Below are positions 34,936-36,435 of a stretch of 64,000 nucleotides of DNA, one piece after another (positions within the stretch are counted from its first letter, which is position 1; every line of letters starts with the position of its first letter). The DNA comes from Mycobacterium sp. Z3061 (GTDB lineage Bacteria; Actinomycetota; Actinomycetes; Mycobacteriales; Mycobacteriaceae): the NCBI RefSeq assembly GCF_031583025.1, contig NZ_CP134062.1, positions 6,111,234-6,175,233 of the forward strand, in the 5' to 3' direction. The position numbers were made by a program, and so were the translations under genes. The notes beneath the pieces are model-generated. The model was given only the letters and a program-made list of their open reading frames with translations. It searched no databases and was not told the origin of the DNA.

Positions 34936-36435
34936 TCAGTTCACGGTCGCCGAGAACGAGTCGACACCCAGGCCGACGCCGCCGCTCCATGGCTCGAAGC
35001 CGGCTTGGATGCTTGTCAGGTACCACGAGTCGGTGATCGACTCCATCGTGGCGGTGTGGTCGATGAAGTCCATCGCGTCGAAGGTCCACACCTCGATGGG
35101 CTGGGTGGCGACGTAGGACATCACATTGTTCTGCCCGTTGCTGCCGTCCCAGACCACGAAGGTCTTGCCGTTGATCGTGGTGTTGCCCACCGGCGATCCG
35201 ACCGGCTGGATGGGGCCCTGGTGGTTGAACCAGATCATGATCTCCTGATCGTTGACCCCGGTGGTGGTGTAGGTGGAGTCCAGCCAGATGTCGTAGGAGG
35301 CGTTCCAGGTACCGGTCGGCACGTAGTTGTAGTCGATGCTGGTGGTCGCGCTGTTGATCTGCCCGAGCTGGATGGGCAGGTTGGTGCCCGTCGACGCGTT
35401 TCCGTAGTGCACTCCCGCATAAACCGAGGGATAGCCCAGGGGCGCGCCGTTGGTGGGGGCGGACCCGTTCTCGGTGGTGATGGTGAACCCGGTCTGGCTG
35501 ACCGTGATGGCCTGGCCGCCCGGGTTGTTCCAAGCGTTGTTCTGCACCACGTAGCCGCCGGTGATCGTCGTCGATCCGTACTGGGTGGAGATGACGGTTC
35601 CACCGGTCGGGAGCGTCGGAGGAGTCGTCGGGGTGGTCGGCGTCGTGGGGGTGGTCGGCGTCGTGGTGCCCGGGGTGCCGGTGATCAGCGGGTTGGTCGG
35701 CGGCGAATAGGTGCCGGTCTGGGCGGCCTGGAAACCGACCTCGACGGAGGTCCCGGGCGCGATCGTCGCGTTGTAGCTCGCCGGGGTCACGGTGTACTGC
35801 TGCGTTGTCGTCGGGGCGAGTTGGCCACCCCAGGCGCTGGATACCGACGAGCCGGTGGGCATGGTGAATTGCAGCTGCCAATTGCTTATCGGCGTAGCGC
35901 TGGAATTGGTGATCGTGTACTTCCCGATGAAACCGCCGTCCCATTGCGATGCCGTCGTATACGTCGCGGACAGACCGCTCGGGGTGGTGGGCGTCGTCGG
36001 CGTCGTGGGCGTTGTGGGCGTCGTCGGCGTCGTGGGCGTCGTGGGCGTCGTGGGCTCCGTCGGGGTGGACGGGGCGGTGGGGGCCGGACGGCCCGTCAAC
36101 AGGCTGACCACACCTTGCAACTGCTGCTCCGCGTTGCGCAGCGAAGCCGCGATGGCAGTCTCGGTGCCGGCATACCACTGCGCACCCGCGTTCAGCGCCT
36201 GCACGATGCGGGCGTTCACAGCGGCCGCCACCTGCGCGCTGATGGTCTGGTACTGCCTGGCCTGCAGGCTGAGGAACCCGTTGACTGCCGCCGATATCTC
36301 GTCGACACCGAGCGCCGCCAACTGCGTCGTGGGAGCCGCCGCCGCGGCGTTGGCAGCAGTCAGCGTGGAGCCGATACCGGCGACATCCGCGGCCGCCGCC
36401 GCGAGCAGCTCGGGCTCGACAATCACATATGACAT
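34936..36435 (-). CDS. PE-domain protein fused to CBM2-like and GH12 (endoglucanase) domains
   Basis: A 499-aa exported protein. It has a PE domain (about 1-98, MSYVIVEPELL), a TTP-repeat linker (about 118-145) and a cellulose-binding-type CBM2-like domain (about 146-245; SQWDGGF, NWQLQF and SAWGGQL supply the surface Trp). A second TTP linker leads to a GH12 domain (about 275-499). The GH12 part has VVQNNAWN, the nucleophile Glu in NDQEIMIWFNHQG and a second Glu in GFEPWSGG. GH12 enzymes cleave beta-1,4-glucans. ATG 36435 has AAGGA upstream; TTG 36441 is less likely. The PE domain predicts type VII secretion of an active cellulase-like enzyme. The substrate could be host-amoeba, plant or the bacterium's own cellulose-like matrix. 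Confidence 0.88.
   Translation of the reverse strand: MSYVIVEPELLAAAAADVAGIGSTLTAANAAAAAPTTQLAALGVDEISAAVNGFLSLQARQYQTISAQVAAAVNARIVQALNAGAQWYAGTETAIAASLRNAEQQLQGVVSLLTGRPAPTAPSTPTEPTTPTTPTTPTTPTTPTTPTTPTTPSGLSATYTTASQWDGGFIGKYTITNSSATPISNWQLQFTMPTGSSVSSAWGGQLAPTTTQQYTVTPASYNATIAPGTSVEVGFQAAQTGTYSPPTNPLITGTPGTTTPTTPTTPTTPTTPPTLPTGGTVISTQYGSTTITGGYVVQNNAWNNPGGQAITVSQTGFTITTENGSAPTNGAPLGYPSVYAGVHYGNASTGTNLPIQLGQINSATTSIDYNYVPTGTWNASYDIWLDSTYTTTGVNDQEIMIWFNHQGPIQPVGSPVGNTTINGKTFVVWDGSNGQNNVMSYVATQPIEVWTFDAMDFIDHTATMESITDSWYLTSIQAGFEPWSGGVGLGVDSFSATVN
35984..36060. repeat. 9-bp tandem repeats encoding the TTP linker of the PE-GH12 protein
   Basis: About eight degenerate copies of a GTCGTGGGC-like 9-mer encode a Thr-Thr-Pro spacer between the PE and CBM2-like domains. 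A shorter set near 35627-35665 encodes the second linker. Such tracts are length-variable and keep the frame. Confidence 0.9.

What the first reader, a model, noticed from the sequence alone, without database searches (positions are those of the whole stretch)
34936..36435. PE domain fused to CBM2-like and GH12 cellulase modules
The gene joins a type VII secretion PE module to a carbohydrate-binding module and a GH12 domain that keeps both candidate catalytic Glu residues (EIMIW and GFEPW). This predicts an ESX-5-exported, surface-displayed beta-glucanase. M. tuberculosis has separate cellulase-like genes (Rv1090/Rv1089, Rv1987) but none in this arrangement that I recall. It suggests that PE proteins can act as carriers for enzymes acting on environmental or biofilm glucan.
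Basis: partly seen in the sequence, partly recalled or inferred. Interest (0 to 1): 0.75.

Follow-up and report, generated by a model that had tools for sequence, protein, structure and literature searches.

The report
Cysteine-free cellulase on a PE carrier
A mycobacterium carries a predicted cellulose-cutting enzyme attached to a mycobacterial export tag; this kind of fusion was already described in 2016, but here it emerges that the enzyme has lost all the cysteines that its conventionally exported relatives keep, which fits a change of export route.

Summary
Confirmed: window 34936-36435 (minus strand) encodes a 499-aa protein with PE, CBM2 and GH12 domains, all far above Pfam cut-offs. 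A confident GH12 model superposes on S. lividans CelB2 over 220 residues at 1.3 A, both catalytic Glu in register. The arrangement is not new: Sultana et al. 2016 (PMC4758615) describe PE-CBD-GH12 and PE-2xCBD-GH12 proteins and name M. gordonae and M. asiaticum among carriers of PE endoglucanases. Open PE-fused GH12 frames occur in 24 of 31 GH12-bearing genomes among 396 of the genus. New here: the 33 distinct PE-GH12 proteins have no cysteine from the PE start on (21,325 aa), whereas of 93 distinct full GH12 domains without detected PE, 89 keep the same four cysteines, three keep two, and one, contig-cut, has none. CBM2, GH18 and GH64 passengers lean the same way. Called PE genes of this genome are about 40-fold poorer in Cys than cytosolic-like ones, about 6-fold under relaxed frame finding. 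Best reading: a surface cellulase exported by type VII secretion, freed from disulfide-dependent folding. Export and activity are inferred; the GH12 loss may be one event.

The parts
34936..36435 (-). PE-CBM2-GH12 gene, 499 aa, no cysteine
36443..36448 (-). GAAGGA, Shine-Dalgarno-like, seven bases before the ATG
   Evidence: sequence read
36154..36426 (-). PE domain, residues 4-94
   Evidence: Pfam PF00934 E 1.6e-24
36160..36174 (-). YAGTE, YxxxD/E type VII secretion motif, residues 88-92
   Evidence: motif in 32 of 33 PE-GH12 proteins
35977..36087 (-). Pro/Thr-rich linker 1, residues 117-153
   Evidence: translation; length varies between relatives
35674..35967 (-). CBM2, residues 157-254; W165, W202 and Y221 at the aromatic-strip positions
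   Evidence: Pfam PF00553 E 3.2e-26; alignments to 2RTT, 1EXG, 6QFS and 3NDY
35602..35664 (-). Pro/Thr-rich linker 2, residues 258-278
   Evidence: translation
34939..35598 (-). GH12 catalytic domain, residues 280-499
35242..35244 (-). Glu398, aligned with Glu120 of CelB2
34993..34995 (-). Glu481, aligned with Glu203 of CelB2

Best explanation
A PE-borne surface endo-beta-1,4-glucanase. The PE helical pair with its YxxxE motif takes the protein out by type VII secretion, most likely ESX-5 (inferred). At the surface the Pro/Thr linkers let CBM2 hold cellulose or a similar beta-glucan while the GH12 domain cuts it by the retaining two-glutamate mechanism (inferred from family). The PE part may be clipped off by a PecA-like protease (inferred by analogy). 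The passenger has lost every cysteine that its non-PE relatives keep, so it can fold without disulfide formation; I read this as adaptation to type VII export (inferred). Domains, catalytic residues, motif, cysteine loss and conservation are shown; export, activity and role are not.
For: Domains. Fold and Glu register. Motif in 32 of 33 PE-GH12 proteins; E398 and E481 in 127 of 127 full GH12 domains. Cysteines: 0 in 33 PE-GH12 proteins, 21,325 aa counted from the PE start; 89 of 89 four-Cys domains without PE have them at the positions of window residues 283, 309, 342 and 347; three others without PE have two. CBM2: 46 of 46 in the PE group have none, 73 of 75 others have two (both exceptions are in the decayed L073 gene; frames L048, L057, L118 and L122, cut before PE, were put in the PE group by hand). 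In 6 genomes a four-Cys non-PE GH12 and a Cys-free PE-GH12 coexist. Same genome: a GH6 with a signal-like N-terminus (by eye) keeps four Cys in the mature part, a signal-peptide CBM2 protein two. Two PE-GH18 and one PE-GH64 passengers are Cys-free where aligned solved relatives carry one to four Cys. Called genes: PE 4 Cys in 19,081 aa, PPE 0 in 5,718, other classes 0.93-1.61%. PE-fused GH12 domains group together, SH-aLRT 98. LipY, also PE-linker-enzyme, is ESX-5 secreted and PecA processed (PMC6819658, passages).
Against: No export or activity data. PE-GH12 is one group on the tree, so the GH12 loss may be a single event and the 33 proteins are not independent; the CBM2 domains counted lie in the same genes. 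The non-PE set is not random: 30 loci and the best 80 of 585 candidates, so remoter GH12 were not counted. L122 has no Cys and no PE detected (contig end). L071 lacks the Tyr of the motif. Relaxed frame finding gives 77 Cys in 54,240 aa for 96 PE frames, 29 of 96 with some; many sit in apparently out-of-frame ends. Non-PE GH12 domains also gain no extra Cys, so only the loss of the four is informative. Of the GH18 relatives, archaeal 2DSK shows just one Cys in the aligned range. EspA, a type VII-related protein, needs a disulfide (PMC12421883, passage). ESX-5 was not told apart from the other ESX loci (7 YukD hits). The LipY hit of the N-terminus is far below its whole-protein cut-off (65 of 450 bits).
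Confidence: 0.75

Rival explanations
1. The enzyme is exported as said, but the cysteine loss is historical chance: one ancestor lost the four residues, or a cysteine-poor GH12 was taken up, and the rest inherited it.
For: PE-fused GH12 is one group on the tree; three non-PE genus members already lack one pair. With the four Cys columns masked, an AU test does not reject PE-fused and four-Cys mycobacterial GH12 as one clade (p 0.61), so the ancestor is unresolved.
Against: CBM2, GH18 and GH64 passengers go the same way, and called PE and PPE genes at large are nearly Cys-free.
Confidence: 0.3
2. The substrate is the bacterium's own cellulose-like matrix rather than plant or biofilm cellulose from outside; the enzyme remodels or disperses biofilm.
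For: Overexpressed and secreted Rv0062 and Rv1090 made M. tuberculosis defective in pellicle formation (PMC7952908, passages). The genome has no GH1 hit.
Against: No BcsB hit in the genome. A GH6 and two GH3 hits and PE-borne GH18 and GH64 suggest a wider attack on outside polymers.
Confidence: 0.35
3. A non-catalytic adhesin that binds cellulose, the GH12 domain being inert.
For: CBM2 aromatic positions kept.
Against: Both catalytic Glu in 127 of 127 full domains and fold intact.
Confidence: 0.05

Closest known systems
PE-CBD-GH12 and PE-2xCBD-GH12 proteins of Sultana et al. 2016 (CPR09297.1, ETW25608.1; PMC4758615)
   Same: Same domains, same order, same catalytic pair; M. gordonae and M. 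asiaticum are named among species with PE endoglucanases.
   Different: The passages and section I saw say nothing of cysteines, export tests or the non-PE GH12 of the genus. The supplementary lists were not opened.
S. lividans CelB2 (1NLR/2NLR), GH12
   Same: Fold, Glu pair, ungapped alignment over 219-220 residues.
   Different: CelB2 has four Cys in the aligned range; here all four are replaced. No PE domain.
LipY and PecA (PE-linker-enzyme proteins; LipY secreted by ESX-5)
   Same: PE domain, linker, C-terminal enzyme; best NCBIfam match of the N-terminus is LipY, below cut-off.
   Different: Lipase and aspartic protease instead of CBM2-GH12.
Non-PE CBM2-CBM2-GH12 proteins of the genus (L032-L036; L034 is M. 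gastri, L036 M. ostraviense by matching contigs)
   Same: Same passenger domains in the same genus.
   Different: N-terminal hydrophobic signal (by eye) instead of PE; four Cys in GH12 and two in each CBM2.

Membership tests
PE family (type VII secretion) | PE domain above Pfam cut-off at the N-terminus | tested here: met
   86.4 bits, cut-off 22, residues 4-94
PE family (type VII secretion) | YxxxD/E motif after the helical pair | tested here: met
   YAGTE 88-92; 32 of 33 PE-GH12 proteins
PE family (type VII secretion) | export depends on ESX-5 | not testable with these tools
   seven YukD-domain hits in the genome; dependence needs a mutant
GH12 | profile match and beta-jelly-roll fold | tested here: met
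GH12 | two catalytic Glu in register | tested here: met
   E398/E481 on E120/E203
GH12 | endoglucanase activity | not testable with these tools
   needs an assay
CBM2 | profile match | tested here: met
   92 bits, cut-off 24
CBM2 | three surface aromatic residues | tested here: met
   W165, W202, Y221 align with W/W/W of 1EXG and 6QFS and W/W/Y of 3NDY; that these form the strip is from PMC4758615 and recall
CBM2 | cysteine pair seen in most non-PE members examined | tested here: not met
   0 of 46 PE-group domains, 73 of 75 others; the profile does not require it, so I keep the membership

The most novel reading that the evidence does not exclude
Absence of cysteines is a general mark of PE/PPE cargo. 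Enzymes recruited onto PE domains shed the disulfides of their Sec-exported relatives because type VII cargo folds in the reducing cytoplasm and does not pass through the DsbA/VKOR folding step. If so, cysteine loss can be read as a footprint of the export route, and it bears on whether this cargo dwells in the periplasm.
Probability: 0.45. Interest if true: 0.65.

Novelty: new member of a known kind. Interest (0 to 1): 0.42.

Why it matters
The fusion adds one well-supported case to a published class of PE-borne enzymes. The cysteine contrast is the useful part: within one genus the same enzyme family exists in a non-PE form with four cysteines and a PE form with none, side by side in six genomes. 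That is a natural comparison for asking how type VII cargo folds and travels. It may also give a simple annotation hint for exported mycobacterial enzymes.

Tried and rejected
The full-length model had mean pLDDT 44.7 and was not used; the GH12 domain alone with 47 sequences gave 94. Whether PE-GH12 came from the four-Cys mycobacterial enzyme or from outside could not be settled: the quick tree places them apart, but the AU test does not reject one clade (p 0.61). ESX-5 was not identified by name: TIGR02958 is not held and YukD hits do not separate the ESX loci. Gene calls in 40 stretches plus the window are my own heuristic (540 genes); the signal-peptide class has only 18 genes, the PPE class 8. 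Rfam gave no match in the window at gathering scores. Searches for cysteine content of PE/PPE or type VII cargo showed no statement of the pattern: listings (2 papers; 8; none; 7), and passages of PMC12421883, PMC6402100 and PMC6819658. Subscription papers are not held, so this is weak. The M. tuberculosis gene order and the guess that the window is M. paragordonae are recalled, from no call.

Full report

Where it comes from. The window lies in a 6.79-Mb one-contig genome. An identical GH12 sequence occurs in M. gordonae CTRI 14-8773 (L118), on a contig of the same length (27,947) as one of G006, which is listed as the same species. The M. gordonae DSM 44160 contig of L126 (112,443) has the length of a contig of G120, listed as same genus only. 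So the window appears to be a M. gordonae-complex species other than that of DSM 44160.

Distribution. GH12 occurs in 31 of 396 genomes of the genus. In 24 of the 31 I found an open PE-fused GH12 frame. Of the other seven, G006 has Cys-free GH12 frames that end before PE (a contig end in one, an apparent frame break in the other), G161 has a non-PE type with four Cys, G182, G212 and G258 a non-PE type with two Cys, G105 a decayed gene and G312 a fragment. Variants include PE-CBM2-CBM2-GH12 (L056, second gene of the window's genome), PE-3xCBM2-3xGH12 (L071) and PE-PGRS-GH12 (L062, L066). The window gene lies with its LCP, SDR, SDR and ECH neighbours in L039-L042 and L045-L047, and with LCP and one SDR in L048 up to the contig end.

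Known before. Sultana et al. 2016 (PMC4758615; outline, passages and section 16 seen) report PE proteins with an endoglucanase domain in M. kansasii, M. gastri, M. gordonae, M. bohemicum and M. asiaticum, one with one CBD (CPR09297.1) and one with two (ETW25608.1), both joined to GH12.

The cysteine contrast. The set holds 127 distinct full GH12 domains; it is made of best-scoring loci, not a random draw. Thirty-four are in, or identical to one in, a frame with a detected PE domain and all have no Cys; one more (L122, cut by a contig end) also has none; 89 without PE have exactly four; three without PE have two. The four lie in the same columns in 89 of 89, at window residues 283, 309, 342 and 347, which here are Ser, Ala, Val and Ala. 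The 33 distinct PE-GH12 proteins, counted from the PE start, hold no Cys in 21,325 residues. Of CBM2 domains in the GH12-bearing frames, 46 of 46 in the PE group have none and 73 of 75 others have two; the two exceptions lie in the decayed gene L073. Six genomes hold both types. With the four columns masked the groups still need the fewest possible changes, though support for the four-Cys group falls from 80 to 67. That the four form two disulfides in CelB2 is recalled; the loss of one pair together in three non-PE domains fits it.

Beyond GH12. In the window's genome the PE-CBM2-CBM2-GH18 protein (849 aa) has no Cys, nor have the passengers of a PE-PGRS-GH18 and a PE-PGRS-GH64 gene. The solved exochitinase 9BUF shows four Cys in the aligned range, none matched in either GH18 passenger; archaeal 2DSK shows one. 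The two GH64 structures printed have one (9VP9) and two (5H9X) in the aligned stretches, unmatched. A GH6 and a CBM2 protein of the same genome with signal-like N-termini keep four and two. In 540 heuristic gene calls from 40 stretches plus the window, 42 PE genes have 4 Cys in 19,081 aa, 8 PPE genes 0 in 5,718, cytosolic-like genes 0.93%, membrane-like 0.95%, signal-peptide-like 1.61% (18 genes). The stretches were chosen around PE genes, and two of them (L222, L223) overlap the window ends, so may count a few genes twice. With relaxed frame finding and repeats removed, 96 PE frames have 77 Cys in 54,240 aa (0.14%), 67 of 96 with none; many of the Cys sit in Arg-rich, apparently out-of-frame ends.

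How it most likely works. PE takes the protein out by type VII secretion; LipY, the best NCBIfam match of its N-terminus (below cut-off), is secreted by ESX-5 and clipped by PecA (PMC6819658, passages). CBM2 holds the polymer and GH12 cuts it. In mycobacteria DsbA and VKOR make disulfides in exported proteins, and about 64% of exported proteins are predicted to carry even Cys numbers (PMC12421883, abstract and passages). A cargo that folds before export cannot rely on that step, which would favour losing Cys. This last step is inference. EspA, with a needed disulfide (same paper), is a counter-example within type VII secretion.

A decayed copy. In L073 (unnamed 4.5-Mb genome of the genus) PE, two CBM2 and GH12 matches lie in order but over three frames, with another PE gene downstream. 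I describe it only. In PMC7952908 Rv1090 (CelA2b) was secreted with an added antigen 85B tag (passages), which would fit a C-terminal piece without its own signal; this link is a guess.

Verdict. Real, well conserved, already described in kind. The cysteine pattern is the part worth following.

Noticed in passing
window 14412-16154 (-): PE-PGRS protein with a histidine phosphatase domain, 581 aa; no Cys in the passenger.
   Followed up: partly
L085 1814-4363 (-): PE-CBM2-CBM2-GH18 chitinase-like protein, 849 aa, no Cys, in the window's own genome.
   Followed up: partly
L207 10494-12062 (+), L210 11347-13338 (+): PE-PGRS-GH18 and PE-PGRS-GH64: with the two GH12 genes and L085 the genome carries at least five PE-borne glycoside hydrolases of three families.
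   Followed up: partly
L071 3854-7720 (-): 1289-aa PE protein with three CBM2 and three GH12 domains; the secretion motif lacks its Tyr (LAAAE).
   Followed up: no
L073 2827-5171 (+): Decayed PE-CBM2-CBM2-GH12 gene over three frames followed by another PE gene.
   Followed up: partly
L055 6308-6388, L064 6551-6655, L069 2557-2676: GH12 C-terminal remnants 1.5-1.6 kb beyond the open PE-GH12 gene, as if a second copy decayed.
   Followed up: no
L074, L075, L076: Non-PE GH12 proteins of three incomplete genomes keep only the second cysteine pair, a possible halfway state.
   Followed up: partly
own genome stretches L198-L237: Several PE_PGRS frames end in Arg- and Cys-rich runs, as if out of frame; assembly error or decay.
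   Followed up: no
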